35,451 nt of DNA from Bdellovibrio sp. (lineage in GTDB: Bacteria; UBA10199; 2-02-FULL-44-16; DYJF01). The stretch is from positions 1 to 35,451 of the forward strand of contig DYJF01000016.1 of assembly GCA_020723205.1 (NCBI GenBank). Direction: 5' to 3'. This document shows, piece by piece, positions 5,866 to 34,937 of the stretch. Every line of letters begins with the position of its first letter. Position 1 is the stretch's first letter. The notes beneath the pieces were generated by a model. The model did not search any database. It worked only from the letters and a program-made list of their open reading frames with translations, and had not been told where the DNA came from. The translations under genes and the position numbers were made by a program.

Positions 5866-7251
5866 ATGGTCCAAACCAACGTCGAGCAGGTCAGTTCGGA
5901 GAATTTCGGTTATCTCCCATGGGCCACACTGGACCCCCAAACGCTGGCGCCTCCCACGGTACCGCCCGTAAGATATTTTAATGAATTGTACGCCGTCTAT
6001 GATGATGTGTGCGGCGGCGCGACAGGACCTTCGGATCCCGCATTCATATCGACATATGCTAACTATGCCGGTTCATTCGCCAGCGGGGCGCTTAAGCGCA
6101 GGTTCTTTTACGGGATCAGCTTGGACAGAAGCGCATGGGCCGGCAGCGATTTCGGCAGGTGGCTTGACGGCGGGAAGATGTGTGCGGAAGGGTCACCGGG
6201 TTTCGAGAGCCATATGCCGCTTCGCACGGCGGTCAATGAGGGCATCTATGAGCGATTGAGGGGTGCTGCGAAGGCGATGCTGCCCGTCGATTTTTTTGGT
6301 TTTGAGCAGGGAAAGGAACGCCCCGTTTTTTATGCGAGCATTGCAAATATCGATTATACATCGCCCGGCAAAAGGAGAACGTTCGCGGGAACGTCAGGTT
6401 TTGCCGAAGTGTATCCTTCAGAATCCACCGGAGTTTACCGGAATGGCTCGGGCGATTTTCTCGTCATGGGCACGGAAGAGATCTCATGGACTCCGAAAGA
6501 CAGGATGGCCCATTTCGGGGGCCGCCTTGTGGTCGGAAAAGATGGATGGGTGGTCGGCAGCGAAGATGTATTCGTGGTAAGAAAGGGAACGGGCGCTGTA
6601 CATCCGTTATTTGAACATGCGGAAGAGGCCGTCAGATTCATAGACGGTCTTGAGGGAGACAGCGTGCCGAGAAGGAGTCGTCCGTTACCGGTCGGGGAGT
6701 TCCTCGAGGCGTTTGGATATAGGTATGTCGGCAACGGTTCGGCCGCCGCCGCATCCGGATATTTCAAGAATATCGCTCTGGATTATGAGGCGGCGTCGAG
6801 AAAATGGTTCACCATGAAGGGCGGAGCATATGGAGAGGTAGTGGTGGGGGAGATGCTGTACAATTCTTCGGAGCAGTATTTTCTTGCGGCGGCCGCGTAT
6901 CTTGCCAACGGCGAATACACTACCGCTATGAGCATGATCGAACAGATGAGATCGCAGATGCTGAACGCAGGCATCAAATATGATGATAAGATGGTAAAGG
7001 GACTGGAAGGGGCGATCGATCGCTTAATGGATCGTTCATACAGGAGCCGCTCGGGACCTCCCAAGAACGGCGGCGTGCCGGTCGGGGGTTTGATGGACAG
7101 CGGAGAGATGATTTCGTCTGCGGGTCCGTCGGCTGCAAACGTCAGCGGGATGAGCACTATCAGAACGCCAAACGCCGTCGCCGGTTTTTTAAATTCCCTT
7201 CGGCTTTATCTGTCCTGGCAGATACCCTCTGCACAGGCCAGAGTGTTCTAG
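5866..7251 (+). CDS. Unknown 461-aa protein with shared C-terminal VGGLMDSGE module
   Basis: I do not recognise a known family. The start is firm (GAGGAGG, 5 bases before the ATG). There is no N-terminal signal peptide. The central part (about residues 130-260) is rich in Gly, aromatic and beta-strand-like stretches. Residues about 335-390 form an amphipathic helical pair around EQYFLAAAAYLANGEYTTA, reminiscent of a TPR-like hairpin. The C-terminus has a Gly/Pro linker, then VGGLMDSGE at 406-414 followed by 47 residues, including a hydrophobic stretch (GFLNSLRLYLSWQIP) and a final Phe. This matches the ends of three minus-strand proteins at 24-35 kb (VSGLLPADE, VGGLLPSGE, VSALLPSGE), and NGGVPVGGL compares closely with NGGGVKVSGL. 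It is therefore likely a member of the same envelope or sorting system; that role is inference. Confidence 0.75.
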   Translation: MVQTNVEQVSSENFGYLPWATLDPQTLAPPTVPPVRYFNELYAVYDDVCGGATGPSDPAFISTYANYAGSFASGALKRRFFYGISLDRSAWAGSDFGRWLDGGKMCAEGSPGFESHMPLRTAVNEGIYERLRGAAKAMLPVDFFGFEQGKERPVFYASIANIDYTSPGKRRTFAGTSGFAEVYPSESTGVYRNGSGDFLVMGTEEISWTPKDRMAHFGGRLVVGKDGWVVGSEDVFVVRKGTGAVHPLFEHAEEAVRFIDGLEGDSVPRRSRPLPVGEFLEAFGYRYVGNGSAAAASGYFKNIALDYEAASRKWFTMKGGAYGEVVVGEMLYNSSEQYFLAAAAYLANGEYTTAMSMIEQMRSQMLNAGIKYDDKMVKGLEGAIDRLMDRSYRSRSGPPKNGGVPVGGLMDSGEMISSAGPSAANVSGMSTIRTPNAVAGFLNSLRLYLSWQIPSAQARVF

Positions 7252-7302
7252 ACGAACCCTATAAAAGTGGTATATTGGGTCCATAGAAGGGGAGGTGCGC
7301 CT

Positions 7303-7476
7303 ATGTATAACGTATTGGGATTTTTCAGGCCCGGGCTTAGCGAATTGCTGATCATTTTGCTCGTTGTCCTTGTCATTTTCGGCGCCGGCCGCCTGCCGAA
7401 GATAGGCGAGGCGTTAGGCGAAGCGATAAAGGGATTCAGAAGATCGTCAAAAGAGGAAGATAAGGAAAATGTTTGA
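7303..7476 (+). CDS. tatA: Twin-arginine translocase subunit TatA, 57 aa
   Basis: TatA forms the membrane-thinning component of the Tat pathway, which exports folded proteins. The protein has a short periplasmic N-terminus, one transmembrane helix (LSELLIILLVVLVIF), the FGAGRLPKIGEALGEAIKGFRR hinge and amphipathic helix in the expected order, and a charged C-terminal tail. The start at 7303 is preferred over the upstream ATG at 7267 because GGGGAGGTG lies just before it and the family begins there. The stop overlaps the tatB-like start by 8 bases, and tatC follows, so this is a compact tatABC operon. Confidence 0.95.
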   Translation: MYNVLGFFRPGLSELLIILLVVLVIFGAGRLPKIGEALGEAIKGFRRSSKEEDKENV

Positions 7477-7624
7477 CATCGGGCTTGGCGAACTTTTCGT
7501 TGTTCTGATCCTCGCCACGGTGCTCTTGGGCCCCGAGAAGTGCCTCAAGTTTGCCAGAGAGCTCGGGGCATGGATAAGAAAGATCGAGGCCCGCTGGAAT
7601 GAGACCAGAGAATCCTTCAAATGA
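7469..7624 (+). CDS. tatB: TatB-like subunit, 51 aa
   Basis: This short gene sits between tatA and tatC. Its translation begins MFDIGLGELFVVLILATVLL and continues with GPEKCLKFARELG, the TatB pattern of a membrane helix, then L-GPE/K and an amphipathic helix. The Glu at position 8 in the helix is typical of TatB. It is much shorter than typical TatB (over 100 aa), so it could be a second TatA-like copy, but its place and its MFDIG start favour TatB. It overlaps the tatA stop by 8 bases and stops 4 bases before the preferred tatC start, suggesting translational coupling. Confidence 0.85.
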   Translation: MFDIGLGELFVVLILATVLLGPEKCLKFARELGAWIRKIEARWNETRESFK

Positions 7625-7628
7625 GGCG

Positions 7629-8369
7629 ATGCCAGTCGACCGGCATCTTGCCGAACTCAAAAGCCGTCTTATAAAGATACTGCTCATCGTTCTTTCCGGG
7701 ACCGTTTTGGCCGGCATCTATTCAAAAGAGATATTCGGGGTCTTGGCTGGGCCGCTCGTTCAAAATATGCCGGCTGGCACAGGATTGCTCGCGCTCTCGC
7801 CTATCGAAGGATGGATGGTTTATCTCAAGGTTTCACTTGTGGCCGCGCTCTTCGCGACGGCGCCGCTGTGGTTCTATCAGGTCTGGGCGTTCCTGCAGCC
7901 GGCCCTTCATAAGAAGGAGCGAAGAACCGTTGCGGCGATCGTGTTGCTTTCGTCTTTATTTTTCGTGTCGGGCGGCGTGTTCTGTTATCTCGTGGTCCTT
8001 CCGGCAGGTTTTAAATACCTGATGGATATCTATTCCGATACGAACATTATGATGCTGCCGCATATGCAGTGGTATTTCTCATTTTTGTTGCGCGCACTGT
8101 TGGCGTTCGGCGCCGCGTTTGAAACGCCGCTGTTCATGATCTTGCTGTCACGGCTGGGGATCGTTTCATCCGATAAGATGAGAAGAACGAGAAAATATGC
8201 GATTGTCGGTATCTTCATATTCGCGGCGATCATGACGCCCGGGCCGGACGTATTTTCGCAGATCGCGCTGGCGCTCCCCCTGGCGCTCTTCTATGAGGCG
8301 GGGGTCGTTGGATCGAGACTGGCGGAAGGGAAAAGAAATCGGACTGTTGTCACAGAGCGGGCTATTTGA
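7629..8369 (+). CDS. tatC: Sec-independent translocase TatC, 246 aa
   Basis: TatC is the multi-spanning receptor that recognises twin-arginine signal peptides together with TatB. The protein starts with the family N-terminus (VDRHLAELKSRL), has six predicted helices, and contains SPIEGWMVYLKV, PLWFYQVWAFLQPAL and the conserved cytoplasmic loop FGAAFETPLFMILLSRLGIV. The ATG at 7629 is chosen over an in-frame ATG at 7599 because it fits the family start and lies 4 bases after tatB; the longer form would add ten residues and overlap tatB. It is followed 12 bases later by the nucleoside kinase gene, probably in the same transcript. Confidence 0.96.
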   Translation: MPVDRHLAELKSRLIKILLIVLSGTVLAGIYSKEIFGVLAGPLVQNMPAGTGLLALSPIEGWMVYLKVSLVAALFATAPLWFYQVWAFLQPALHKKERRTVAAIVLLSSLFFVSGGVFCYLVVLPAGFKYLMDIYSDTNIMMLPHMQWYFSFLLRALLAFGAAFETPLFMILLSRLGIVSSDKMRRTRKYAIVGIFIFAAIMTPGPDVFSQIALALPLALFYEAGVVGSRLAEGKRNRTVVTERAI

Positions 8370-8381
8370 TAAGGAACGAAT

Positions 8382-10037
8382 ATGACAAAGAACATCTCGC
8401 TTGTGCTGAACGGCAAGGAACTGACCGCTGCGATCGGAACGCGGATAGCCGATATCCTCGGCCAGAGTCCGCACAGGGGGCCGTTCGCTCCGATAGGGGC
8501 GATCATCAACGGCCGTCTTGACGGTCTGTATTACGAACTGAAGTCGGACGCGGCGATCGAAACCATAGATCTTTCACAACGCGAGGGTATGGATATTTAT
8601 CGAAGGACCGCCATAGTGATCCTCTGCTCGGCGATGAAGGACATAGATCCGCACGCCCGGCTTACGGTCGGGCAGTCCGTTTCAGACAGCTATTTTTTCG
8701 AGATCCACAACCATCCCGTTTCGAACGAGCTCATCTCCAATCTTGAAAAAAAGATGCACGAAATAGTGAGCGCAGACATCCCGCTCAAGAGGGACTGGAC
8801 GATAATCGAGGAGGCGATACAGACGTTCGAGCAGGAGGGACAGAACGACAAGGTGATGCTCCTGAACCAGTATCGCAGGTCGGAGGTCCCGCTCATAAAG
8901 ATCGAAAAGCATCACGGGATAGCATACGGCCCGATCGCGCACAGAACAGCGACGATAAATGTGTTCCGGCTTGTGCCGTACGAGCACGGAATGGTGCTCG
9001 TGTTCCCCGATTCGAACGGAAAGATGCCGGATGCAATACCTCCGCAGCCGAAGCTCTTCGCAACTTACGTGGAGACAAAGAGGTGGTACGAGCTGGTGGG
9101 GGCGTCGAACATCGCGCAGCTCAACGAACACTGCGTCAAGGGAACGATATCGGACCTCGTAAAGGTGGCGGAGGCGCTTCACGAAAAAAAGATATCTGCG
9201 ATCGCCGACGAGATCGCATCGCGAAAGAACGTCCGCCTCGTTCTTATCGCCGGGCCCTCCGGCTCCGGCAAGACCACGTTCACAAAGCGGCTGGCGATAC
9301 AGCTAAAACTTCACGGAATATCGCCGGTCTCTCTCTCGTTGGACAATTACTATGTCGACCGTGAAAAAACGCCCAAACATCCGGACGGATCGTATAATTT
9401 CGAATGCCTCGAGGCGCTCGATGTGAAGCTTCTGAACGATCATCTTAAGCGGCTTTTGAACGGCGAGGAAGTTCAGACTCCGATATATAATTTTCCGCTG
9501 GGACGCAGGGAGCCGGCCAGGGTGAACAAGAGGAAGCTCGGCAGACACGAGATCCTGATCACAGAGGGTATACACGGCCTCAACGATTCGCTCTCAAGGG
9601 CGGTCAACAGGGAGAATAAGTTCAAGATATATGTCTCTGCGCTCACGCAGCTTTCGCTTGACGATCACAACCGCATTTTCACGACGGACGTCCGTCTCGT
9701 AAGAAGGATAGTCCGCGACCGTCTTTTTAGGGGCTCAAACGCCGCCGACACGATAAGGATATGGCCGAGCGTGCGGAAGGGCGAGGCGGAGTATATCTTT
9801 CCGTATCAGGAGGACGCCGACGTCATGTTCAACTCGGCGCTTGTCTACGAACCCGCGCTTTTGAAGCCGTTCGTGGAAAGGTATTTGGCGGAGGTCCCGA
9901 GGGGACATCCTTCGTTCATGGAGGCGGGGCGCATATTGAGGTTCATCAACTTTGTAATACCTATTTTGCCCGGAGAGGCGCCCCACACTTCGATACTTAG
10001 GGAATTCATAGGCGGCAGCGCCTTCAGATACACGTGA
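8382..10037 (+). CDS. TGS-type uridine/nucleoside kinase, 551 aa
   Basis: The N-terminus (about residues 1-70) is a TGS-like domain. Residues about 70-230 resemble the second additional domain of threonyl- and alanyl-tRNA synthetases, with a HNHPV motif at 109-113. The C-terminal half is a P-loop uridine-kinase-family domain: GPSGSGKTT at 291-299, SLDNYYVD, and EALDVKLLNDHL. This architecture is known from nucleoside kinases of several bacteria, which phosphorylate uridine or other nucleosides in salvage; the substrate cannot be read from the sequence. It is the last gene of the tat operon. Its TGA stop directly abuts the stop of the minus-strand gene, forming TGATCA with no spacer. Confidence 0.88.
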   Translation: MTKNISLVLNGKELTAAIGTRIADILGQSPHRGPFAPIGAIINGRLDGLYYELKSDAAIETIDLSQREGMDIYRRTAIVILCSAMKDIDPHARLTVGQSVSDSYFFEIHNHPVSNELISNLEKKMHEIVSADIPLKRDWTIIEEAIQTFEQEGQNDKVMLLNQYRRSEVPLIKIEKHHGIAYGPIAHRTATINVFRLVPYEHGMVLVFPDSNGKMPDAIPPQPKLFATYVETKRWYELVGASNIAQLNEHCVKGTISDLVKVAEALHEKKISAIADEIASRKNVRLVLIAGPSGSGKTTFTKRLAIQLKLHGISPVSLSLDNYYVDREKTPKHPDGSYNFECLEALDVKLLNDHLKRLLNGEEVQTPIYNFPLGRREPARVNKRKLGRHEILITEGIHGLNDSLSRAVNRENKFKIYVSALTQLSLDDHNRIFTTDVRLVRRIVRDRLFRGSNAADTIRIWPSVRKGEAEYIFPYQEDADVMFNSALVYEPALLKPFVERYLAEVPRGHPSFMEAGRILRFINFVIPILPGEAPHTSILREFIGGSAFRYT

Positions 10038-11294
10038 TCAATTCTGCGCAATGGTCTCTTTGAGAACGTCCAAATAGGGGATCCCTGCGGCGCCTCCCGA
10101 CTGGGAGAACTGGACCGGATCGTAGGACCTGATCTTTTCCACGAACCTCTTGATCACGTTTTCCCACTTTGTCTCGGGGACCTTCAGGAGCTTCAGATAG
10201 AGCTTCAGCTCCTCATAGAAATGTTCGTCGAAGACGACGTATCTTTCCCTGTATAGGTCCTCCATCTGCCATCTGTTCTTCCGCGGATCGTACGCTTGCG
10301 TCATTACGTCGTACTGCCAGCTCAAGCTTTCAAGTTCGAGGTACTGCTCCGAGATAACATCGTCCATGGCGAGGAGAGAATCCATGATGCCTATGTTGTC
10401 TATGCGGTCTCTGAAGTCGCCCAGGACCCGCCACATATTCTCTATCGTCAGGAGCTGGATCCTCTTCTCCTTGAAATGGGACCAAGTGTAATTCGAGATA
10501 TCGCCCAGTCGCTTGCTGTAATATTCGAAGAGGGGCAGGAACCATTCGCGGTCGCGGATGGTGGAAGACGTATGTCGCTCGAGCGGAGCGCTCCTTTTAT
10601 CGTAACAGACAAAGTCGTAGTCCGCGGGATTCAAGCCGGAAGACTGGGGACCTCCGAAGCGGTCCTCTGGCGCCGGCCGCCAGTGGGAGTCGAGCGCCTG
10701 CATTGCGCCGTCTATGGTCGCTATCTCGTAAGGATAGTAGTTCTGCCAGCCGCCCTTCTGGAAGATGAGCGACCCCAGAAGGTGAAAGGCGGCGTGATCG
10801 CCCGCGTCGTAAGGTATTATGTATGTATCGTAGACGACGATCGAACCGAACGACGCCTTGGGACAATAGACCTGCGTAAAGTCGCGTTTGAGATAGTATC
10901 TGAACTCGTCCGTATGGACGTATCGTCCGGCGAGCTCATTGTAGCCGGCGGCAGTCAGCGACGTCTGATAGCAGTTGGGCCCCACCACATCGTCCCTCGT
11001 TCCGTTCCGTGTGCTGACTATTTTAGGGATGAAGCCGGTTACGTCATACACACGCGCGTTGTTGTAAGGGCCCACGCCCGCCGGAGGGTTCTCAACAAGC
11101 TGCGGGGTCAGCGGCTGGTTCCCGAACCATGATATGATACGGGAGACGTCGTTCTGAACCGGCTGGTTTTCAGGGATCGCCACGTAATAACCGCCCTGCG
11201 TCTGCGGGGCGCAGAACGTGTACTGGCTTGTCGAACTGCAGATGAACGGAGACTGGGACTGTTTTGCGGGAGAGGATACGACGGGGATTGTCAT
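10038..11294 (-). CDS. Unknown 418-aa protein with cysteine-peptidase-like core
   Basis: There is a strong ribosome-binding site (AAGGAGGG, 5 bases before the ATG), and the frame is intact. Residues about 95-200 carry a pattern that looks like a papain/NlpC-like cysteine peptidase: GPNCYQTSLTAAG with Cys108 at a helix start, FGSIVVYD as a strand, then DHAAFHLLGSLIFQKGG with His167, and a PYEIATI strand. Similar GPNC...HAxxxL...FxKxG arrangements occur in uncharacterised proteins of predatory and deltaproteobacteria. There is no classical signal peptide, but the N-terminus contains three Cys/Ser-rich stretches. The C-terminal half is helical and charged. Function is not assigned; the catalytic residues are a prediction. 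Confidence 0.6.
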   Translation of the reverse strand: MTIPVVSSPAKQSQSPFICSSTSQYTFCAPQTQGGYYVAIPENQPVQNDVSRIISWFGNQPLTPQLVENPPAGVGPYNNARVYDVTGFIPKIVSTRNGTRDDVVGPNCYQTSLTAAGYNELAGRYVHTDEFRYYLKRDFTQVYCPKASFGSIVVYDTYIIPYDAGDHAAFHLLGSLIFQKGGWQNYYPYEIATIDGAMQALDSHWRPAPEDRFGGPQSSGLNPADYDFVCYDKRSAPLERHTSSTIRDREWFLPLFEYYSKRLGDISNYTWSHFKEKRIQLLTIENMWRVLGDFRDRIDNIGIMDSLLAMDDVISEQYLELESLSWQYDVMTQAYDPRKNRWQMEDLYRERYVVFDEHFYEELKLYLKLLKVPETKWENVIKRFVEKIRSYDPVQFSQSGGAAGIPYLDVLKETIAQN

Positions 11295-11343
11295 AACGCC
11301 CTCCTTAACCCCCGCAAAAGCTTATCTGATGCGGCCTAGAAAG

Positions 11344-11823
11344 TCAACCACCCTTGCGTCCCTTGGGACGCGGTGCCTCCACCATTCTGATCTTGGAGCG
11401 CACGCCGTAGTCGAACGGCCTTAGGAGGGGTATATCTATGGCCAGGATCTTCTGTGTCGCAATGTCGTCGGGGAACTCCGATTTGATCTCCTGCGCCCAT
11501 TCGAAGCACGTGAGTATCTCGCCTATCACATAGTCGAAATACTTCCTGTCCGCTTCCAGTACGTTGGGCAGCTTAGTACAACGTTCCGCGAGGAGCGTCG
11601 CAAGTATCGAGCAGAAACGCACCTCGTCTTCCGGAGACAGGGCCAGAAAATGATCTATCAGGAGCCGCTGGACTATTATCCTAAGGTCGCGGACCGCATC
11701 GCCCAGCACGCCGATCGGTTTTCTAAGCTGTCTTTCCGTCAGATAGAACTCGAACATCTCCAAGAGGTTCTTCACCTCTCCGTTGAGTGCGGCGCCGAGC
11801 TCTGTGGTCATAATATTCTTCAT
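11344..11823 (-). CDS. Unknown 159-aa helical protein
   Basis: The predicted structure is nearly all alpha-helical (NLLEMFEFYLTERQL, RDLRIIVQRLLIDHFLAL, FCSILATLLAERCTKL), with a basic, Pro/Gly-rich tail (PRPKGRKGG). There is no signal peptide or membrane segment. No strong ribosome-binding site is visible; ATGs at 11823 and 11811 are both possible. It lies 49 bases upstream of the cysteine-peptidase-like gene on the same strand and may be co-transcribed. I do not recognise the family. Confidence 0.6.
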   Translation of the reverse strand: MKNIMTTELGAALNGEVKNLLEMFEFYLTERQLRKPIGVLGDAVRDLRIIVQRLLIDHFLALSPEDEVRFCSILATLLAERCTKLPNVLEADRKYFDYVIGEILTCFEWAQEIKSEFPDDIATQKILAIDIPLLRPFDYGVRSKIRMVEAPRPKGRKGG

Positions 11824-11868
11824 AAGGCCATAATATCAGATATCGATAGCTCCGCAAGAGGAAGCAGA

Positions 11869-11895
11869 CGGCCCGGTCATATTATGACCGGGCCG
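11869..11895 (-). terminator. Hairpin, likely terminator of the comEA-like gene
   Basis: Perfect 12-base arms (CGGCCCGGTCAT and its complement) enclose a 3-base loop, 27 bases after the comEA-like stop. The following minus-strand bases are only moderately T-rich, so termination may be partial. Confidence 0.6.
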
Positions 11896-11922
11896 AATGC
11901 CGTACAGGTCAAGGCCTGTCCG

Positions 11923-12303
11923 CTAGAAGGTCTTGCCTGTCGTTCCGGGAGATGCTTTGACTGGGAGTTGGGGGGTGCCGGAGGCGGGGGCGGCGACAGC
12001 CGTTGCGGTCGACTGGCCGGAAACGGCGATGTGCGGCTCTATCGAAGCATAGAGCTTGTCGCCGATACCTTTTACGTCCTTCAACTCATCGGGCCTCTGG
12101 AACGGACGGTCCTTGCGGTAGTCGATGATCGACTGCGCCTTTGAGGGTCCGATGCCGGGAAGCATGGTCAGCTCCGCGATGCTCGCGGTGTTGATGTTCA
12201 CGGTGCCCGTGATCGTCTTCTTGCCCTTGGCCTGGGCCAGGCCCGCCGCCATTGTCAGGCAAGCGACGGCCACGATAGCTGCGAATACCTTTGTTCGTTT
12301 CAT
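11923..12303 (-). CDS. ComEA-like secreted helix-hairpin-helix DNA-binding protein, 126 aa
   Basis: A signal peptide (about 25 residues, ending AQA) precedes a ComEA-type double HhH domain: VNINTASIAELTMLPGIG, KAQSIIDYRKDR-PFQ, DELKDVKGIGDKLY. The tail after about residue 95 is Ala/Pro/Thr-rich and low in complexity. ComEA proteins bind double-stranded DNA in the periplasm during uptake, but short soluble relatives like this one are widespread and not all serve competence. GAGGAGG lies upstream of the ATG, inside the end of the preceding 62-aa gene, with only one base between that stop and this start, so the two genes form an operon. Confidence 0.9.
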   Translation of the reverse strand: MKRTKVFAAIVAVACLTMAAGLAQAKGKKTITGTVNINTASIAELTMLPGIGPSKAQSIIDYRKDRPFQRPDELKDVKGIGDKLYASIEPHIAVSGQSTATAVAAPASGTPQLPVKASPGTTGKTF

Positions 12304-12304
12304 T

Positions 12305-12493: not shown

Positions 12494-12651
12494 TTTCTTC
12501 CTCCTTGTGTGACACGATCGATCGTAGCGTCTTGTTCATAAGCAAGCGACGTGCCATCGAAAAAATGCGCAAAACGGCTTTTAGGACTGTATTTCAGGAC
12601 AGGGGGAGATCGATTTTCGTGCAGTGTGACCGGAAATGCTGCAGTCGGGGA

Positions 12652-13623: not shown

Positions 13624-13687
13624 GTGGATATGTCTATGGGGCGCCCACTTCCTTGTCAACTGCGATAAGCTGTGTTATCCAGAGGAC

Positions 13688-14416: not shown

Positions 14417-14445
14417 AAAAGGAACAACAAAGGGAGAGGATGCAC

Positions 14446-24264: not shown

Positions 24265-26661
24265 TCAAAACGCGTTCGCAAAAGACAAAGGCAACATCCT
24301 GAACATTGTGGGCGGCCTGAAAACGACCGGTTGCGGACGTACCGCGCGCATCATCGTTGCACCTGTGACAACCGTGTTCCTGACGGGCGCCGTCGAACGC
24401 TCGCTGGACGAAGAGAAGGGCCCGGAACTCTCGTCAGCGGGCAAAAGCCCCGACACCTTAACGCCGCCGCCGTTGCCGTTTGTACCTCCGTTACCGTTCG
24501 GAGTGACAGGGTTCCTGTCATTGACCCCTATTCCGCCGTTTAAGCGTTGCCACAACTTCATATATAGAACGGAGACCTCGGTGTCGCCGTTGCCGTTGCC
24601 CATCTTGGCGTCGTGATCGAGAAAGGCGCGCTTGATGTTGTCGGGCAGGTTCTTCCAGTCGTCAACGAGCGCCTGCGCCCTTACGGTGAGGACCGTCGGA
24701 TAGGAAGCCAGTTCGTCGTTCTCCTGAACGAGCAACTTCATTACGAGCGAAAGATCGTAACCTTCGTACTCGATGGAGCTGTCTTCTGCATCGTATCTCC
24801 ACGGTTCGCGCGACGGCTCGATGCGGCCACGCTGCATCGTGCCCACGCGGAGAGACGTGCGCATCAGCTCGACGAACGACGTCGGTATGACTGCTCTCTG
24901 GTCCGCCTCCCCGAACTGCGCCTTGATTCCAGCGGGCAGCTCCCTCCACGCCTCGTACAGCACGGTTACTCGAGCGTTGATTATCGAGAAACTGTAGCGC
25001 TTCAGCTCCGGCCTGATCGTTACCAATCGTTCATAGACCACGGCGAGTTTTCCCGCATCGCGCAGGTTCGCATCCTTTTTGAAGCGTCTCATGAAAAGCA
25101 TAGGCAGCTCGCCGCCCAGGAGCGTGCGGCCGGGTTCCACAAAATTGGCGCGGCTTGTCTCGTCGAGTTCCAGCCATTTTTCTATGACCATTCGCGCCAG
25201 ATATTGCGAGGTGGGAACGCTTAGCCGCGTATCCTTCACGAGCTGTTCCGTCACGCTGTCGAGCCGCGGCCTGATGTGAAAGGAGATGCTCTGCGCAAGC
25301 CGCCTCATGTCAATCTTCTGCGGAAGCGCCGCTATGAACTTGGCCGGCAGGTCGCCGCCGTTCGGCGGTCTTGTCACGTCCACCAGCATCGCCTGCGCGG
25401 TTCTATCCGTCTTTCTCCAGATATCTATCGCCATCTCCGCGGCGTGCTGCGCGGTTTGCTCGCCCGTTCCGAAGAACTTCGCCGCGAGTATCTGGTTCTG
25501 CACGTTGTAAACCATGGGAACGACCCCGGCCGCTATCTCTTTTGATATCTCTTTGGCCCATTCCTTTGAGGAGGTGTGGACCTGCGCTATCACTTCTTCA
25601 CGGACGTATTTCATAGCGAACCACCTTATGAACTCGTTGGGGAGCGCGCCCCGCAGCGGCAGCGTGTCGTTCTTAAGATATTCGCCGCGAGCTTCCGGCG
25701 TTAAGGCGTGCCACCTGTTGATGGCAAGCTCGGAGAGATAGAGCTGCACGTATTCTTTTTGCACGTCGAACAATTGCCCGGCTTGCCCGTACGCGGCGTC
25801 GTCCTTCAAGCTTTCAAGCTGCGTCAGGACGACGGATCTAAGCGGCTTTCCGCGGATCGGGTCCGCATCCGGAACGACCGGTCTTAGGTCGGGACTTGTC
25901 TGACGCGGGTTCTCCGCTTTTGCCTCGCCGGCCCCGGCCGCTTGAGTTTGAACGGGCCCTTCGTCCTGTTTCGGCGTCCTCGGTTTCTTGTTCTTGTCCG
26001 TTATCCATTTAAGCGTGAAGATATATTTCAGCGTCTTTCCGAATTCATAGACCGGTCCGCTGAAGAAGTTTCGGACCTCTTTCAAGAACGCCTTCGATTC
26101 CCTGTTGAGGGCGCGCAGCGCCTTTGTGGCAAGGCCGATGTTCTCATTGGCGGCCTCCGCCTCCTTGCCGATCTCGCCTATTATCCTTATGAACCTCTTT
26201 ATGTATAGGATAAGTGTCGCGGCGCCCGTTGCGATGGCTCCGCCGCCCAACCAGCCGATCCCGCTTGAATCGCCGGGCGGCGGAGGAGGCGGAGTTCCCT
26301 GTCCCGTCTGAACGCCGCGGCAGAAGGTTGATATCTCTTCAGTATCGCCGGCGCTCATTCCCATGCAGCGCTCGCGCAAGGAGACGCCTTTGCTTTTTTC
26401 GTACTCGCTGACCGCCCGTTCGCATTCTTCGGAGAAAATCCTGCATTGCGGGGCGGCAGCCATGAACCGCTTTATGTCGCGCGCGAGCGTTGAACAGCCG
26501 GCGCTTTCGAACCAGCTGCAGAACTGGACGGCGCTCTGGAAGCTAAAATTTCGCGGGGTCTGCTTAAGCGTTTCGCAGAAACGGCTCTCCTCGCAGCCGG
26601 CATCGTTTACGGGACAGCATACGATGGAAGCAAGGGTTGAAACAAATTCTTGATCGCTCAT
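24265..26661 (-). CDS. Membrane-anchored repeat protein, 798 aa, with shared C-terminal module
   Basis: This is an unrecognised protein. The N-terminus (1-118) is cysteine-rich with about 11 Cys, many as CC, C-x-C-like pairs. A Pro-rich hinge and one transmembrane helix (about 135-156, ending LYIKRF) follow. Residues about 310-705 contain five copies of a helical motif at about 311-350, 410-445, 491-526, 567-600 and 663-703: Trp, a few residues, then R-x-x-F, then a loop with G-x-L-P and F (GALPNEFIRWF at 338-348 is the clearest). The same motif appears in the 2137-aa protein (GELPPAFIRWF). The Asn/Gly-rich tail ends with VSGLLPADE at 736-744 and 54 further residues. The start has GAGGAGGG upstream. 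It probably sits at the cell envelope; function is unknown. Confidence 0.8.
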   Translation of the reverse strand: MSDQEFVSTLASIVCCPVNDAGCEESRFCETLKQTPRNFSFQSAVQFCSWFESAGCSTLARDIKRFMAAAPQCRIFSEECERAVSEYEKSKGVSLRERCMGMSAGDTEEISTFCRGVQTGQGTPPPPPPGDSSGIGWLGGGAIATGAATLILYIKRFIRIIGEIGKEAEAANENIGLATKALRALNRESKAFLKEVRNFFSGPVYEFGKTLKYIFTLKWITDKNKKPRTPKQDEGPVQTQAAGAGEAKAENPRQTSPDLRPVVPDADPIRGKPLRSVVLTQLESLKDDAAYGQAGQLFDVQKEYVQLYLSELAINRWHALTPEARGEYLKNDTLPLRGALPNEFIRWFAMKYVREEVIAQVHTSSKEWAKEISKEIAAGVVPMVYNVQNQILAAKFFGTGEQTAQHAAEMAIDIWRKTDRTAQAMLVDVTRPPNGGDLPAKFIAALPQKIDMRRLAQSISFHIRPRLDSVTEQLVKDTRLSVPTSQYLARMVIEKWLELDETSRANFVEPGRTLLGGELPMLFMRRFKKDANLRDAGKLAVVYERLVTIRPELKRYSFSIINARVTVLYEAWRELPAGIKAQFGEADQRAVIPTSFVELMRTSLRVGTMQRGRIEPSREPWRYDAEDSSIEYEGYDLSLVMKLLVQENDELASYPTVLTVRAQALVDDWKNLPDNIKRAFLDHDAKMGNGNGDTEVSVLYMKLWQRLNGGIGVNDRNPVTPNGNGGTNGNGGGVKVSGLLPADESSGPFSSSSERSTAPVRNTVVTGATMMRAVRPQPVVFRPPTMFRMLPLSFANAF

Positions 26662-27642: not shown

Positions 27643-27655
27643 GGCATCTTCTAGC

Positions 27656-28507
27656 TCATCGAAAACGCAAGGTCAAGAAAGGCATGGCCGCCGTGCTGAA
27701 CGATGAGACCCTCGGCGGCAAGGGGAGGCCCAGCGCCGTGCGCGATCCTAAGACCATCGCCCGCAGCGGATGCCGCAGGAATGTCCGGCTTGCACCCGTC
27801 GGTCTTGCGTTCCCTTCGCCTGACGGAAGAAGACCGCCCACCGTAACGGTCGGCGGCGGATCGTCGTTATCGGTTGTGCCGCGCTTGTCAGCGACGCCCT
27901 TGTTCGCCTCCACGACCGGTTGCGGCGGAGGGGTCTCTTGGGGTTGTGCGGTCGCCTGTTTCTTTCTCCTGAAATAGATGAAACTTGCGACGTTGGCCGC
28001 TACAAGCACGCCGAGCGCCACCCACTTCCATACGCCGTCATCGGACGATCCGCCGTATGTGCTGTCGGCATGCAGAAGGCCCACGCCACCGGAGATGAGT
28101 CCGTAGAGCGGAGCGGGTTCGGTCTCCATTGAGCTGAAGACGTCCGGTATGGCCGGCTCGGATGGAGGCATGTTGCCGCCGTTCGGCAGCGGCTTATCCT
28201 TGCCGCCTGCGCCGCCTGAACCATCCGGACCGTCTGGCGGACCTTTCTTCCGCGACCTGAAGAACGGCAAAAGCATCAGCGCTACCATCGCGACGACGGC
28301 GGCGATCTCTTTCCAATCCCTTTCTTTGCGGCTTTCGTCTTTTCCCTTAAGCGCGGCCGCATCCGGACACCGGCAATACGTGTCCCGCGGTTCGCAGGGA
28401 CAGTCGTCCGCATCGTCAATGGCGGAGATCGTCGGTCCGTCATAGAGATAACCGCGCGGGGCCCCTACGATCTTGGCCGCTTGGCAATAACTATCTGACA
28501 CATCCAT
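27656..28507 (-). CDS. Two-helix membrane protein with shared C-terminal module, 283 aa
   Basis: This is an unrecognised protein. The N-terminus (1-50) has a Cys cluster (DDCPCEPRDTYCRCPD). Transmembrane helix 1 is about 67-84 and helix 2 about 160-179, each followed by basic residues (RSRKKG, FRRKKQ). Between them is a Gly/Pro-rich loop, PPDGPDGSGGAGG, that echoes GGPGDGPGGGTSGNG after the membrane helix of the 2137-aa protein. The end carries VGGLLPSGE at 223-231 followed by 52 residues ending in a hydrophobic, aromatic stretch (MPFLTLRFR). A GGAGG site precedes the ATG. It starts 16 bases after the 2137-aa gene. Confidence 0.78.
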   Translation of the reverse strand: MDVSDSYCQAAKIVGAPRGYLYDGPTISAIDDADDCPCEPRDTYCRCPDAAALKGKDESRKERDWKEIAAVVAMVALMLLPFFRSRKKGPPDGPDGSGGAGGKDKPLPNGGNMPPSEPAIPDVFSSMETEPAPLYGLISGGVGLLHADSTYGGSSDDGVWKWVALGVLVAANVASFIYFRRKKQATAQPQETPPPQPVVEANKGVADKRGTTDNDDPPPTVTVGGLLPSGEGNARPTGASRTFLRHPLRAMVLGSRTALGLPLPPRVSSFSTAAMPFLTLRFR

Positions 28508-28523
28508 TTTTAAACCTCCGGTT

Positions 28524-31500
28524 TTAATGCAATGACTGACAATTCATTCTCAATGGTTGAGTGAATCTTAAAAAACTTGCGACGAACGGCTGCATCGTGC
28601 GGGCCGGCATTGAAATTGCGCGGCCGGATATCGGGTTCCACGCATGAGGTGCGGCGCCGCCCTGTGAGATCGGCGCCTCGCCGGAGGGCAGAAGCGCACT
28701 TACGGCGCGGCCTACTTCGCTCCCGTTATGAGGCGCCGGCGCAGCCCCGCCACCCGCGCCCTGTCCGCCTTGGGCAGCGGGTGTTGCGCCGCCGCTGGGT
28801 GCATTGCCCTTCAAAAGCTCCGGTGCGATATGCCTTGAGAACCACCTTATGAATGCAGGTGGAAGTTCGCCGCGTCTTGCAATGAGTTCGGGTATCGCCT
28901 GCGAAACGAACCATGATTTCTGGACGGGTTCAAGAATCTCCCACGCGCTGATTGCTGCGGCGGCGAGATTTGAAATCGTGCCGCGCTGGCGATCAGGTAC
29001 AACGACACCCCCTGCGATCTGATCGATGACCGCCTTCTGTACTCCAAAGATGTTTGCAATCACTTTGTCCTGTTTCTGGAACCTGAACTTGGCCGCCTGT
29101 TGTTCGAATTCTTTGATATCAGTCATGCGATGTCTGTGCCTGAATATTTGTTCAATAAAATTAGCGAACCATATGGGTGGTCTGCTCTCGTCAAACGCCG
29201 CTTGTACCTCGTGCGCATATTCCTCTATCGCAAGATGAATGTAATAGTGCCTGGCATGACCGGATAATTTGAGAAAGTTCCGCCCGTCTTCAAAGAGCTG
29301 GTGTGATTTTGAACGAGCGGCATCGTTCATGATGCCGTTTACCAGCTCAAAGTCGGCGATGAGCCCGCCGACCTTATCGGCAAACTTTTTAATGCCACTT
29401 AGGACGAGTTCTTTTAATTTTTGGGCGTCACGAGTTGTTTGTGCATCCGCGCCGGCCAGGAGCCCTGTGACTTGCGCCTCGTCGGTAGCACGCTGGGTCG
29501 GCTTGATCTCCACTCCGTCGACAAATAGAGAACCGGTCGAGCGAGGTGCGGAAGGGGTGGCGTGTTCCAGAGGGCGGGGCGGGGTCGTTGTCGCTGCTGG
29601 ACTCTTTTCCGCCTCTCTGCGCTCGTATGCCAGATAACGTGCCAACTCTGAAAAGAGTTCGTGGTAATACATAAGTCCCGGATTTGATTTGGCGAGCTCG
29701 TTTTCCACTTGGACTCTTGTTCTGAAGCCAACATCATTGACATCACCTCCGGGCGCGCTGGCGGCATCCATGGTTGCAAGTGTGATCGGTTCGTCATGCC
29801 TTCTGAAATAAAAGGCGAGATTACCCCCATGCCTTATCGAAAGTATGAAATCGATGAACGCTTGCGGATAAGTGTCGCCCGGACGCGGCTGCCCGAATGC
29901 GGCGCGGAGATCATCGGACATTTTATCCCAAACGCTGACAAGTTCTTTTATTTTGAATTTGGCAAAGTCATGGGCAAACAGTTTTGTCAACACTGGCGGC
30001 ACATCCATCTTCTTAGAGACCGAGTTGTAGAGCGATTTTTTAACTCCATCCGATGCCAATCTTATTAGATAGCTGCGAATTTGAGAAACATAGCTGTATG
30101 ATCTCAAGGCCATGTCCATTTCTTCAGAAAATTCGGCGAGGTCCATTGTTTTTGCGGGCTTGGTGACGAGCGACCAGCGTGCAAGATTTTTCGCCTCTTG
30201 GGCGACGAACTCGTAGGTGGGAGCAAGTTCGTAGTCCTTTAGATGGGATAGTTTTATATTGTATCTCGACTGCACAAGACGCAAGTTCCAGAGAAAAAGA
30301 ATGGCCTGTGCTATGGAAATGAGATTATCCGAATCCGACATGCCGTCCAACTTGTCGGCTACAGGTTCGTCTCTCAATTTTGTTATCACGGAACGAATGA
30401 AGCGTGAATCCGGATTCAAATGGTCGAACACTTCCAGATCGATGACGTAATGGCCCTCTCCTACCGGAGGCGATTGAGTGGTGGCCGCAGAAACAGTAGC
30501 AGCAGGTGTTGCAGAGGCAGCTATGGGCGATGTGGCAGATGGTGTGGTCTGCCGTGCTTGCGTCCGATAGAAATACTTTTCCGCCAAGCGCGCCACTTTG
30601 GCGTAGTCGGTCTCATTCGGAACAGTTGAGAGAAAATCGCTGAACCAACGAGGAAGCGGGCTAGGCAGATGCGATCCTCCGAATTGATCGACAATTTCCT
30701 CAGGCATGGACACCCAGACAGACTTGAGAAATACTGTCCCTTGTAAGCGCGGCGCGGCAAAAGCCTCCGATTGCGCCGCGGGCGTGGCAGGAGCAACGGG
30801 CGCGGATGGTACTTGCGGAGCCGCAGGTCTGGCAGACGTCGGTAAACTTGACGAGACCAGCGCCGGGCCGAAGCCGGGAACCTGTACGCGTACGGACTCC
30901 GGCAAAGCACTGGGAGCAACCGGTGCGGAAGGCGCGGCTGCGGGCGACACGGGGGCGGGTGCCGATTGCGTAGCGACTGATGATGCCTCTGTGGCCAAAC
31001 GCCGGCGTATGAGTGCGTGCAGAACACTTGGGTATTGCGCAAGGCCCGGATGCTCCTTCAGCAATTGGCCCTCAAATCTCTTCATATCCTCTGCAATCGC
31101 GGGGGAATAATAGTAATCAACATTTTCCGGTATCCCCGCTTTGAAATAGTGGCCTATATCACCACCCTGTTCGGCCAAGGTCAGCAGGAATTCGATGAAG
31201 AGCGAAGGATAAATGCGGCCGCGCATAGGACCGAATGCATCCTGGAGCTGTTTGGGCATTCTCTCCCAAGTCTCGGCCAATTCTTTGAGCTTCAATGGGG
31301 CGAATTCCGTCACGAACAGATCCATATACATGAGCGGTATTTCGATGAGACCGCTGTCTTTGCGGAAAAAAAGTTCCCGGAACGCTAGAACAACAAGGGC
31401 GTCGAGGTAATCGTTTTCCTGTTTGGTGATCCCGGCCAAAGAAGGATCGACTCCGCGGCCGGACATGAAACCGACTCTGTTTTGAACACTGCTCCAATCT

Positions 31501-34500
31501 AAGTTCTGCTCGTAAAGTTTCTCGTAATTAAAACCGCCCCTTCTGTATTGGCTTCGAAGAGAATTGTCCTTCGTTAGTGAGGCAGCTTGTTGAAAAATGA
31601 AATCACGGTTGTAGAGAGGAGTTGTTCCCCCGCTCATCAACCATCTGAATTCTATGATGACTGCCATTTCGTGTATGAAGTTTTCATACACGTCTTTTTC
31701 CCCCCGCAGAACTTCCCGCACATACTGCAATGAAAAATGTTGCATTGAAATGCTTTGGAGGTTTTCGAACACGCGAGTGCCTTGAATTTGATACGGTTCT
31801 TGGGCCGCAGGCGCAGCGGGAGCGGAAGGTGCGGCCTGAGTAGACGGGCGCAGAGGGGGAAACTCTGCTTCAAGCACGTCTTCATCTAACCCCATCGCGT
31901 CTGCGATATCGCGCACGATCGCCCTTTCCACCGCTCTTTCCATAGATACTGACGGCTCAGCAGGCGCAGCTACGGCGGCTGGCGCAGGTGGTGCGGCGGT
32001 TTTTGCCGGTTGGGCGGCTATCTTCTCGGCCAAGTGCCACGTGAGAGTTCTCAAGACCAACGGATAATTTCCAAGACCCGGGTAGTCAGAAAGCAACACC
32101 TTCCCGGCCTGCCGACGTTCTTCGGTCGTCCAATCCACGTCCTCCTGCCTGCCGGTTATATAATAGATGCTTATCTCATCGCCTTTCTTAGCGACGGCCA
32201 GCATGAAATCCAGGAAGAGCTGGGGATATGGTTGACCGCCCGTGGGCTTGCCGAACGCCTGATGCAGTCCCTTCGGCATATTCTCCCACACATGAGAGAG
32301 CTCCTTCAATTTCAGGCCGGCATATTCTCTTGCGAACAGATCCAGGTAGATATCTGAAAGTCCGAAATATCCGACGTCTTCGGAAGAGAAATATTTCTTG
32401 AACGCCAGGACCGCAAGCTCCTGCAGGTAGCCGATCTCCTGCGCCGAGGCGGGAGTGCCGATGGAACCAAATTTATTTATCACGGAAAAATAGTAACCCT
32501 GGACCAACTTCTTGAGATATTCATCATCGTGATGCCCGACCCTGTTCTCGGCGCCGCGGTAGGCGGCAAGCGAGGTTTTATTTTCCAAAAGCTTCCAGGC
32601 CTGTTCCTTTATGAATTCAGTCGTGGGTGAGTGATCCATTTCTCCCTTCAAAAGCCACCTGAACTCTATGATGTATGCCATCGCCGTCAGGTCCGCTTCA
32701 TCAGCGCCCGGCTCTGCGCGGAGATGAGCTCTTATGTTCGTCATCACATAGCGCTCGTTCTGTGTAACGGCGTAGAGCTTGCCGATAGTGCGAGAGCTCA
32801 AGACCCAGTATTGCGGTGGCATCTGTTGGGCCGGGGCCCCACTTCTGGTGGCTGCTACGCGCGTTGCAGGACGGGCAGGCGAGGTCCTTGCCGGCGCGCG
32901 GGGTGCAACGGCCGGAGCGGTTGCCTTCGGCTGCGGGTTGCGTTCGGCCGCCTCTTGGCGCTGCCATGAGCGTCTGTGCTCGATCCGTTCAAAGACATGT
33001 CCGTAATGGAGAAGGCCGGGAAATCTTGCGGCGAGCTCTTCGTGGACCTGTCTTGAAATGGTCCCGCTGTCGTCCCGATCCAGACCGTAGTGAGCTTTGT
33101 ACGGTCTTTCGTTCCTTTCCAGCGCGTAGCTGATGTCCAGACCGCCGCTTGCCGCGAGCATGAACTCGATGAAAAGGGCGGGATATCCTTCGCCCGGCGC
33201 TCTTCTTCCGAATGCTTCGCGGAGTTCGTCAGGCATATCGCCCCAGATACGTGCAACCTCATTAACCTTCCACAGGGCAAACCGCTTGACGAATAATTGT
33301 ATGAAGATGTCATCCAGATTGAAGCGCCCAGTTTTCTTATCGAAAAAAGAGCTTTCGAAAGCCGACACTGCAATTTCTGAAACGTAATCGGCCATTTGCC
33401 TGTCGGGTTCGTAAAAAAGCATGTAATCATTGCGAACTCGACGACGCAGGCCCTCGGCAACTTTGCTTATGGGCTCGCTCTGTGGAAACAGATGAATCAG
33501 CTCTATCGCTTGCTCTTCGATGAACCGGCGCGTCGGCGTGCGATCAGTATGGTTCATTTGCCTCAACGAAGAGTTCGGCCGAGCCCTCATCAGTGCCAGA
33601 TTCCACAGGAAGAGAACGGCTTGAGCGATCGTCTTTGCATAGCCATCGTCTGTTCTGCTGCGAAGTTCACCCATTGTGAGAAGCTGGTTGAGCAGTGGAT
33701 CGTTGTCGAAAATTATGGGGAGTTCAAAGGCCGCCAGATTCATTATATAACTTGGCACGTCGGGCGAAGCAGTCCCTGCTTGCGCCTCAAGTCGCAAGTC
33801 GGAGAAGGCCTCAAGGGGCTGCGGGGCGGTTGACGCTTGCGGCCGGCTCATTGCTTCGGCCGGAGCGATTGCGGGAGCGGTCACAGGTGCCTGGGGCGCC
33901 GAATTTGGGACCTCCGCCTTGAGTGCGACGGGAACGAGGAGAAGATCACCTCCCATCCCCGCCCTGTGATTTACGTATTCAATGAACGATTCGGGGATCG
34001 GGCCGCCGTGATAATTGAATCTGGCCCTTTTCACTTTGTGATCTGTGTCCTTCCAGACCTGTATGATGTCGGCGGCGCGTCCGTCGATTTCGATAAAAGA
34101 ACGCTTTCCGGCGTAACTCTCACCGTTTTTTGAGACCCATGCGAAGACGCGCGCGCGGGTCAAGAGCCGTTCGATCTGCTGGCGCGAGAAGGTCTCTCTG
34201 TTCGAATCCGGCTCGATCCTCAAAATGAGGTTCACCTCCGTCGATTCGATGACTTTCTTCGGAAGCCCGCCCGTCATCGTCAGGTGGTCCCTTCGGGATT
34301 CGGAAAGCATCGACCAGTCATCGATTCCCCACTTCGCAAAGTATGAAAGAAGTACCTCTTGATCCTCTTTCTTTTTGACGCCCAGTTTCGCAAGTTGTTC
34401 CGAGTATGCGGCCTTGTATTGTTCGATGACCGCTTCAAGATTTGGCTCCTTCGGCGCAGGGGGAGGGGGAGTTGCAGGCGCCTCGTCTGCACTTGTCGTC

Positions 34501-34937
34501 GCGTCCTTCCCGCTTTTTCCCCTGCCGAACCAGTTGCTGAAAATTCCAAGCGGGCCTACGGAGACGAAAGGCATCGCAACCGTCTCTCTTAGCGCGCCCC
34601 ACGGAGAGCCGGTGTTCGGGCGGCCGTGATCATCCGGTTTTTCGGTGCCGTTTCCGCTGGTGCCGCCTCCGGGTCCGTCTCCCGGACCGCCTTTTCTTTT
34701 GATGATGGCCAGAACGAGCACGAGAATCGCGAGTGGAAAAGTGATGAGCGGACCTATCCATCTATATTCGCCCGGATCCTCTTCTTTTTTTTCAGGCGCT
34801 GCACCATTCGTCCGGACGGCATCGGCTCGTGCTCCGCGCTGATCCAAGACGGGAAATTCGCCCGTCTCCGAAACTGCGGCGAGATAATAAGGCGGTTGCT
34901 GTGATGATGCAGGACCTGCGACACCGGGGGCGCTCAT
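28524..34937 (-). CDS. Giant membrane-anchored repeat protein, 2137 aa
   Basis: This is an unrecognised protein and the largest gene in the window. One transmembrane helix lies at about 60-80 (WIGPLITFPLAILVLVLAII) followed by KRK and a Gly-rich hinge. Four divergent helical domains of about 265-280 residues lie at about 398-660, 709-972, 1048-1314 and 1497-1774, separated by Pro/Ala-rich linkers. Each contains W-x-x-M-P/S-x-x-L-x-x-AFG, then YPxxFIxF, and ends with an NPGL/HPGL...YP-like block. Domains 1 and 4 share QA(V/I)LFLWNL; 2 and 3 share IIEFRWL. Shorter versions of the motif lie at about 287-324, 1405-1438 and 1990-2034. It ends with SALLPSGE (2080-2087) and 50 residues. An AGGGAG site and a promoter at 34991-35019 precede it. 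The role may be structural at the envelope; this is inference. Confidence 0.85.
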   Translation of the reverse strand: MSAPGVAGPASSQQPPYYLAAVSETGEFPVLDQRGARADAVRTNGAAPEKKEEDPGEYRWIGPLITFPLAILVLVLAIIKRKGGPGDGPGGGTSGNGTEKPDDHGRPNTGSPWGALRETVAMPFVSVGPLGIFSNWFGRGKSGKDATTSADEAPATPPPPAPKEPNLEAVIEQYKAAYSEQLAKLGVKKKEDQEVLLSYFAKWGIDDWSMLSESRRDHLTMTGGLPKKVIESTEVNLILRIEPDSNRETFSRQQIERLLTRARVFAWVSKNGESYAGKRSFIEIDGRAADIIQVWKDTDHKVKRARFNYHGGPIPESFIEYVNHRAGMGGDLLLVPVALKAEVPNSAPQAPVTAPAIAPAEAMSRPQASTAPQPLEAFSDLRLEAQAGTASPDVPSYIMNLAAFELPIIFDNDPLLNQLLTMGELRSRTDDGYAKTIAQAVLFLWNLALMRARPNSSLRQMNHTDRTPTRRFIEEQAIELIHLFPQSEPISKVAEGLRRRVRNDYMLFYEPDRQMADYVSEIAVSAFESSFFDKKTGRFNLDDIFIQLFVKRFALWKVNEVARIWGDMPDELREAFGRRAPGEGYPALFIEFMLAASGGLDISYALERNERPYKAHYGLDRDDSGTISRQVHEELAARFPGLLHYGHVFERIEHRRSWQRQEAAERNPQPKATAPAVAPRAPARTSPARPATRVAATRSGAPAQQMPPQYWVLSSRTIGKLYAVTQNERYVMTNIRAHLRAEPGADEADLTAMAYIIEFRWLLKGEMDHSPTTEFIKEQAWKLLENKTSLAAYRGAENRVGHHDDEYLKKLVQGYYFSVINKFGSIGTPASAQEIGYLQELAVLAFKKYFSSEDVGYFGLSDIYLDLFAREYAGLKLKELSHVWENMPKGLHQAFGKPTGGQPYPQLFLDFMLAVAKKGDEISIYYITGRQEDVDWTTEERRQAGKVLLSDYPGLGNYPLVLRTLTWHLAEKIAAQPAKTAAPPAPAAVAAPAEPSVSMERAVERAIVRDIADAMGLDEDVLEAEFPPLRPSTQAAPSAPAAPAAQEPYQIQGTRVFENLQSISMQHFSLQYVREVLRGEKDVYENFIHEMAVIIEFRWLMSGGTTPLYNRDFIFQQAASLTKDNSLRSQYRRGGFNYEKLYEQNLDWSSVQNRVGFMSGRGVDPSLAGITKQENDYLDALVVLAFRELFFRKDSGLIEIPLMYMDLFVTEFAPLKLKELAETWERMPKQLQDAFGPMRGRIYPSLFIEFLLTLAEQGGDIGHYFKAGIPENVDYYYSPAIAEDMKRFEGQLLKEHPGLAQYPSVLHALIRRRLATEASSVATQSAPAPVSPAAAPSAPVAPSALPESVRVQVPGFGPALVSSSLPTSARPAAPQVPSAPVAPATPAAQSEAFAAPRLQGTVFLKSVWVSMPEEIVDQFGGSHLPSPLPRWFSDFLSTVPNETDYAKVARLAEKYFYRTQARQTTPSATSPIAASATPAATVSAATTQSPPVGEGHYVIDLEVFDHLNPDSRFIRSVITKLRDEPVADKLDGMSDSDNLISIAQAILFLWNLRLVQSRYNIKLSHLKDYELAPTYEFVAQEAKNLARWSLVTKPAKTMDLAEFSEEMDMALRSYSYVSQIRSYLIRLASDGVKKSLYNSVSKKMDVPPVLTKLFAHDFAKFKIKELVSVWDKMSDDLRAAFGQPRPGDTYPQAFIDFILSIRHGGNLAFYFRRHDEPITLATMDAASAPGGDVNDVGFRTRVQVENELAKSNPGLMYYHELFSELARYLAYERREAEKSPAATTTPPRPLEHATPSAPRSTGSLFVDGVEIKPTQRATDEAQVTGLLAGADAQTTRDAQKLKELVLSGIKKFADKVGGLIADFELVNGIMNDAARSKSHQLFEDGRNFLKLSGHARHYYIHLAIEEYAHEVQAAFDESRPPIWFANFIEQIFRHRHRMTDIKEFEQQAAKFRFQKQDKVIANIFGVQKAVIDQIAGGVVVPDRQRGTISNLAAAAISAWEILEPVQKSWFVSQAIPELIARRGELPPAFIRWFSRHIAPELLKGNAPSGGATPAAQGGQGAGGGAAPAPHNGSEVGRAVSALLPSGEAPISQGGAAPHAWNPISGRAISMPARTMQPFVASFLRFTQPLRMNCQSLH

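What the first reader, a model, noticed from the sequence alone, without database searches (positions are those of the whole stretch)
5866..34937. Common C-terminal module (V-x-G-L-L-P-S-G-E plus about 50 residues) in four proteins
Four otherwise different proteins end the same way: VGGLMDSGE (461-aa protein, 47 residues from the end), VSGLLPADE (798 aa, 54), VGGLLPSGE (283 aa, 52) and VSALLPSGE (2137 aa, 50). The motif follows a flexible Gly/Pro/Asn-rich linker (NGGVPVGGL and NGGGVKVSGL are close). The tails are Arg-containing, rich in Ser/Thr/Pro and end in hydrophobic or aromatic stretches. A conserved end module behind a linker, in proteins that mostly have a membrane helix, looks like a sorting, secretion or assembly tag. 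I know no described tag with this motif.
Basis: partly seen in the sequence, partly recalled or inferred. Interest (0 to 1): 0.82.

Follow-up and report, generated by a model that had tools for sequence, protein, structure and literature searches.

The report
Genome-wide C-terminal export-like protein tag
At least 27 otherwise different proteins of one uncultured bacterium end in the same short motif followed by about 50 residues almost free of acidic amino acids, which looks like a private address label for export, perhaps through the bacterium's type III secretion machine.

Summary
A profile of the four window tails finds further carriers on 12 other contigs of the same genome. In all, 27 proteins (210 to 2,137 aa) carry [VI]-x-[GAS]-L-[LM]-x-[ST]-[GN]-E, 53-67 residues from the end in 26 of 27 (99 in one). 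The tail after the motif is 44-58 residues in those 26: D+E 1.7% (bodies 13.7%), K 1.1%, rich in A, P, R, M and F, with no membrane helix. The motif is nearly absent elsewhere. In two unrelated families, homologues from related genomes stop exactly where linker and tail begin, so the tail is an added module; those homologues tend to have an acid-poor N-terminus instead. Carriers have no obvious Sec signal peptide (one has a hydrophobic N-terminus) and five- to eight-fold less cysteine than other genes. The genome encodes a type III secretion apparatus, as does nearly all its phylum, and no VirD4. A genome of another family has an analogous private tag (MNSGPLxTGxELY plus tail). Best explanation: a lineage-private C-terminal export tag on leaderless substrates, probably of the type III system (confidence about 0.45; export of some kind about 0.65). 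Export and receptor are inferred, not shown.

The parts
5866..7251 (+). Carrier 1, 461 aa; two cysteines (49, 106) at the positions typical of the C81/C9 paralogue family
7081..7107 (+). Motif VGGLMDSGE of carrier 1
7108..7248 (+). 47-residue acid-free tail of carrier 1
24265..26661 (-). Carrier 2, 798 aa (a shorter 699-aa start is also possible)
24430..24456 (-). Motif VSGLLPADE of carrier 2
24268..24429 (-). 54-residue tail of carrier 2 (one acidic residue)
27656..28507 (-). Carrier 3, 283 aa, two predicted membrane helices in the body
27815..27841 (-). Motif VGGLLPSGE of carrier 3
27659..27814 (-). 52-residue acid-free tail of carrier 3
28524..34937 (-). Carrier 4, 2137 aa, one predicted helix near the N-terminus
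28677..28703 (-). Motif VSALLPSGE of carrier 4
28527..28676 (-). 50-residue acid-free tail of carrier 4

Best explanation
The module is a lineage-private C-terminal export tag. A flexible Gly/Pro-rich linker presents the short motif (probably the docking site for one receptor or chaperone) and a disordered, acid-free, Arg/Met/Phe/Pro/Ala-rich tail of about 50 residues. The tag routes large proteins without Sec leaders to the genome's type III export apparatus, taking over or supplementing the role that acid-poor N-terminal leaders seem to play in relatives. Shown: the tag, its position and composition, its add-on nature in two families, the low cysteine of the bodies, the type III gene cluster, and an analogous tag in another lineage. 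Inferred: that carriers leave the cytoplasm, that type III is the route, and that the motif is the docking element.
For: 27 carriers share motif, spacing and tail composition. Tail-like C-termini occur in 27/27 carriers and 2/122 other genes, and both exceptions lie in carrier arrays. DUF7790 homologues in G005 end where the tail starts; ABC1 giant homologues in G005 and G021 end at the same boundary. Relatives' DUF7790 homologues have 0-3 acidic residues in the first 30, against 4-8 in the tagged ones (n = 10 and 3, partly related sequences). Bodies hold 0.13% Cys against 1.09%, or about 0.22% if the longer starts of two window proteins are used. A cysteine pair of one paralogue family is absent together from one member, as expected of a disulphide. 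Type III genes: SctR, SctN, SctS and SctL over curated cut-offs, plus SctV (cut by a contig end), SctJ, SctT, SctQ, YscO-like and a SycD-like chaperone. No VirD4 in G000. A truncated gene on the type III contig has a tail-like end. Genome G035 has an analogous tag. C-terminal targeting signals exist in flagellar type III substrates (PMC10936197).
Against: No experiment and no receptor found. Nearly the whole phylum has the type III apparatus, but this tag version was found only in this genome, so its receptor would have to be lineage-specific. Known type III signals are mainly N-terminal, and carriers' N-termini are not acid-poor. One or two other G000 proteins do have acid-free N-termini, so an N-terminal route may coexist. 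Type I and type VI systems were not searched for. Low cysteine points to export generally, not to type III. In one search the ATPase and SctS score about as well against flagellar models.
Confidence: 0.45

Rival explanations
1. The tail is a C-terminal signal for another leaderless route, for example a type I ABC exporter with a roughly 50-residue uncleaved C-terminal signal, a type VI or contractile injection system, or an undescribed exporter.
For: Tail length and C-terminal place match type I signals (own knowledge); carriers are large and cysteine-poor; VirD4 absent.
Against: Carriers are scattered among housekeeping genes in gene lists in which I recognised no exporter operon, though these lists were not systematically annotated. 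The acid-free, Arg-rich tail is not the usual type I pattern (own knowledge).
Confidence: 0.2
2. The module acts after export or inside a target cell: retention on the surface, assembly with partners, or targeting within a protist or prey cell.
For: Type III apparatus; effector-like kinase and ATPase domains; acid-free, Arg-rich, Lys-poor tails resemble organelle transit peptides in composition.
Against: No host is known; a nine-residue motif at fixed spacing suits a docking site better than a transit peptide.
Confidence: 0.13
3. The tag recruits proteins to an intracellular structure: a protein compartment, a polar scaffold or a condensate.
For: Linker plus short motif resembles cargo-loading peptides; Arg/Phe/Met-rich disordered tails can drive assembly (own knowledge); histidine-kinase-like and ABC1 domains are normally cytoplasmic.
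Against: Cysteine depletion and the cysteine pair absent together from one paralogue point to an oxidising place; carriers reach 2,137 aa.
Confidence: 0.13
4. The tail is a degron or regulatory tail: a hydrophobic, acid-free end read by a protease.
For: Non-polar disordered C-termini can act as degrons (own knowledge).
Against: The upstream motif and 44-58-residue spacing are unnecessary for this, and the bodies look like exported proteins.
Confidence: 0.05
5. The tail spread by recombination or duplication as a neutral 3' end cassette.
For: Carriers often lie in paralogue arrays.
Against: Tails have diverged to about 25% identity while motif and composition stayed; bodies belong to unrelated families.
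Confidence: 0.03

Closest known systems
C-terminal export signal of early flagellar subunits FlgC, FlgE, FlgG (PMC10936197)
   Same: A C-terminal segment that targets a substrate to a type III export machine; an Ile, an Arg and a Tyr are critical in FlgE.
   Different: No shared motif known; flagellar subunits also need N-terminal signals; not a genome-wide tag on unrelated proteins.
C-terminal chaperone-binding ends of flagellin, FlgK, FlgL and FliD (FliS, FlgN, FliT docking on FlhA; PMC5932034)
   Same: Substrates delivered with a chaperone to FlhA, the SctV counterpart.
   Different: The chaperones are substrate-specific; here one tag would serve 27 or more proteins.
PEP-CTERM, GlyGly-CTERM, MYXO-CTERM and LPXTG sorting tags
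   Same: Short signature motif near the C-terminus, behind a linker, on many unrelated proteins in one genome.
   Different: Those have a membrane helix and a basic cluster after the motif, and carriers have Sec leaders; here neither was seen.
C-terminal translocation signals of type IV effectors (Dot/Icm, VirB/D4)
   Same: C-terminal and leaderless; many unrelated effectors.
   Different: No VirD4 coupling protein in this genome; a conserved motif 50 residues upstream is not typical (own knowledge).
Encapsulin cargo-loading peptides
   Same: Gly/Pro linker followed by a short motif at the C-terminus.
   Different: Motif at the very end, few cargoes, smaller proteins (own knowledge); encapsulin not searched for.

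Membership tests
Type III secretion substrate | Non-flagellar type III export apparatus in the genome | tested here: met
   SctR, SctN, SctS, SctL over curated cut-offs; SctV, SctJ, SctT, SctQ below theirs or truncated; ATPase and SctS score similarly on flagellar models
Type III secretion substrate | N-terminal acid-poor, unstructured signal | tested here: not met
   D+E about 15% in the first 30 residues of carriers, not below controls
Type III secretion substrate | Secretion lost when the apparatus is removed | not testable with these tools
   needs an experiment
CTERM/LPXTG sorting tags | Membrane helix plus basic cluster after the motif | tested here: not met
   no 19-residue window of the last 45 residues reaches 1.7 in any of 27 carriers
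CTERM/LPXTG sorting tags | N-terminal Sec signal peptide on carriers | tested here: not met
   26 of 27 carriers below the 2.2 hydrophobicity limit; one (C20, 450 aa) reaches 2.35; a dedicated predictor was not available
Type IV effector signal | VirD4-type coupling protein present | tested here: not met
   genome 83% complete
Type IX C-terminal domain | Sec leader plus 70-100-residue conserved C-terminal domain | tested here: not met
   no clear Sec leader; tail 44-58 residues and divergent
Type I signal | ABC exporter, HlyD and TolC set | not tested
Encapsulin cargo | Encapsulin shell gene | not tested
   not searched

The most novel reading that the evidence does not exclude
In this uncultured phylum the type III export signal can switch ends. 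Homologous leaderless proteins carry an acid-poor segment at the N-terminus in most lineages but at the C-terminus, behind a lineage-private docking motif, in others, so each such lineage has its own C-terminal password for a type III machine.
Probability: 0.3. Interest if true: 0.9.

Novelty: new variant of a known kind. Interest (0 to 1): 0.75.

Why it matters
A tag that marks its substrates by sequence reveals a whole set of candidate secreted proteins (kinase-like, ATPase-like and giant repeat proteins) in a phylum with no characterised secreted proteins that I know of. If it feeds a type III machine, it would show that such machines can read a C-terminal address on unrelated non-flagellar proteins, and the end-switch between relatives offers a natural experiment on how export signals evolve.

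Tried and rejected
Relatives of a whole window protein in named genomes: none. Tag profile in 39 relatives and the 46 phylum genomes held: outside the own genome only one spurious internal match. Seven genomes reached through GroEL: weak hits; those inspected were internal or unrelated. VirD4 route: absent from this genome. Known structures resembling the tail: none. Single-sequence structure prediction of the 461-aa protein: mean pLDDT 35, useless, so no fold search. Pfam on the four window proteins: nothing over cut-off, including a sub-threshold LPXTG-anchor match to a body helix. G030 as a third lineage with a C-terminal tag: one giant has an Arg-rich acid-poor end, but no shared motif appeared in 302 kb sampled.

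Full report
The motif lies with 47, 54, 52 and 50 residues after its glutamate in the 461-, 798-, 283- and 2137-aa proteins, and 20,000 shuffles never reproduced it in all four. The four bodies have no Pfam family over cut-off.

A profile of those four tails alone, run on the window's own genome (1.75 Mb, 85 contigs, 83% complete), found about ten further ORFs ending the same way. Rebuilt profiles raised the count to 27 carriers on 13 contigs. The consensus is [VI]-x-[GAS]-L-[LM]-[PD]-[ST]-[GN]-E, often followed by AP. Variants include VTNLMGSGE, ISALLGTNE, IGSLDETAE, ITGLDESGE, ISGLYDTRE, VNRLIDTGE and VGGLLEEE; a few carriers have two motifs in tandem (C33, C59, C70). In 26 of 27 the tail after the E is 44-58 residues; in the 1977-aa protein it is 90. 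A strict motif is found 24 times in 16,783 residues of carriers, 21 of them 53-63 from the end, and twice in 50,180 residues of other genes.

The tail is a compositional class of its own: D+E 1.7% against 13.7% in the bodies, K 1.1% against 4.0%, R 9.3%, A 16.5%, P 11.0%, M 5.1%, F 6.4%. A rule of few acids, few lysines, some arginine and no membrane helix holds for 27 of 27 carriers and 2 of 122 other genes, and both exceptions sit in the C9 and C75 carrier arrays. Fourteen of 27 tails end in Arg or Lys (read). Tails are otherwise divergent.

Carriers are diverse. Two on C20 have a histidine-kinase ATPase domain, three on C2 are DUF7790 proteins, and the C74 protein has an ABC1 kinase domain. 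C81/C9 hold a paralogue array whose members share an N-terminal segment with a VCG...GxxC cysteine pair; both cysteines are absent from one member. That array appears to run across the gap between C81 and C9 (inferred from matching partial genes). Carriers show no obvious Sec signal peptide; only the 450-aa C20 protein has a hydrophobic N-terminus above the limit used. Cysteine in the bodies is 0.13% against 1.09% in 133 other genes (Mann-Whitney p = 7e-12). Start codons are uncertain: with the longer starts of the 798- and 283-aa proteins the figure is about 0.22% (my count).

The tail is an add-on. DUF7790 homologues in G005, a genome of the same order but another family, align with the three tagged proteins over the body and stop where the tail begins. 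The ABC1 giants of G005 (2019 aa) and G021 (1942 aa) also stop at the boundary where the G000 protein continues into linker, motif and tail. The same homologues tend to have acid-poor N-termini: 0-3 acidic residues in the first 30 for ten DUF7790 homologues, against 4, 5 and 8 in the tagged ones. The sample is small and start sites are assumed.

In G000 the ABC1 giant is interrupted by an in-frame TAG within the ABC1 domain, so it is read here as two pieces and was not joined. Its N-terminal piece begins MSGATGKVISGLLPAAE, the only tight motif outside the C-terminal class. The aligned part of G005, just after an acid-free leader, reads GKLIPSVLAD. The motif may therefore not be strictly C-terminal in origin.

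The phylum set (46 genomes held, one class) has a type III export apparatus almost throughout. SctV and SctR matches were each over the curated cut-off in 38 of 46 genomes, while four control genomes matched only below it. G000 has SctR, SctS, SctT, SctQ, SctN, SctL, SctJ, YscO-like, FliM/FliG-like and SycD-like genes on C61, and a SctV cut by a contig end on C60 beside SecA, as in relatives. The ATPase and SctS score about as well against flagellar models, so the apparatus may be early-branching (inference). A truncated gene at the start of C61 ends in a tail-like sequence without the motif. VirD4 was not found in G000. Type I and type VI were not tested.

Private tags recur. In G035, of another family in the class, proteins on C34 and C7 share MNSGPLxTGxELY 57-67 residues from the end followed by an acid-poor tail, and a third protein on C80 has a tail-like end without the motif. 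SGPLxTG resembles SGLLPSG, but homology is not shown. No other genome searched gave a credible match to the G000 profile.

Interpretation. A fixed-spacing motif behind a flexible linker, on unrelated leaderless cysteine-poor proteins, is best read as an address tag. I favour the type III route because the apparatus is present, relatives of the same proteins have acid-poor N-termini, and C-terminal targeting signals are known for flagellar substrates (PMC10936197; chaperone docking on FlhA, PMC5932034). Against it, the apparatus is phylum-wide while the tag is private, and one or two G000 proteins keep acid-free N-termini.

GroEL is nearest to MAGs labelled Deltaproteobacteria (79% identity). 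My guess of GTDB phylum UBA10199 was not tested.

Limits: gene calls are my own, from a simple codon model on sampled stretches enriched for carriers, and the control genes come from the same stretches. The 27 count is a minimum for an 83% complete genome.

Noticed in passing
window 10041-11294 (-): 418-aa protein whose first 40 residues are free of acidic residues (MTIPVVSSPAKQSQSPFICSSTSQYTF...), a possible N-terminal type III signal in the same genome.
   Followed up: partly
L025 1972-8028 (G000 C74): Giant ABC1-kinase protein interrupted by an in-frame TAG inside the kinase domain; homologues of about 2,000 aa in G005 and G021 are uninterrupted. Its N-terminus also bears the motif (ISGLLPAAE).
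   Followed up: partly
L268 and L272 (G035 C34, C7): Analogous private C-terminal tag MNSGPLxTGxELY plus acid-poor tail in another family.
   Followed up: partly
L020 and L022 (G000 C9, C81): Array of about nine paralogous genes, most of them tagged and histidine-kinase-like, with an N-terminal cysteine pair that is absent together from one member.
   Followed up: partly
L222, L223 (G000 C61): Type III cluster that mixes injectisome-type and flagellum-type parts (FliG- and FliM-like, SctJ, TPR chaperones), possibly an early-branching system present across the phylum.
   Followed up: partly
L207, L208-L211: SctV lies next to SecA, an M23-peptidase-like protein and a PP2C-phosphatase-like protein in several genomes of the order (recognised by eye, not by profile).
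   Followed up: no
L208 6580-9742 (G003 C18): Two HEAT-repeat-like proteins beside SctV share the N-terminus MSSVNxxxGxxGxPLNTAGLEEG, possibly an N-terminal tag of that lineage.
   Followed up: no
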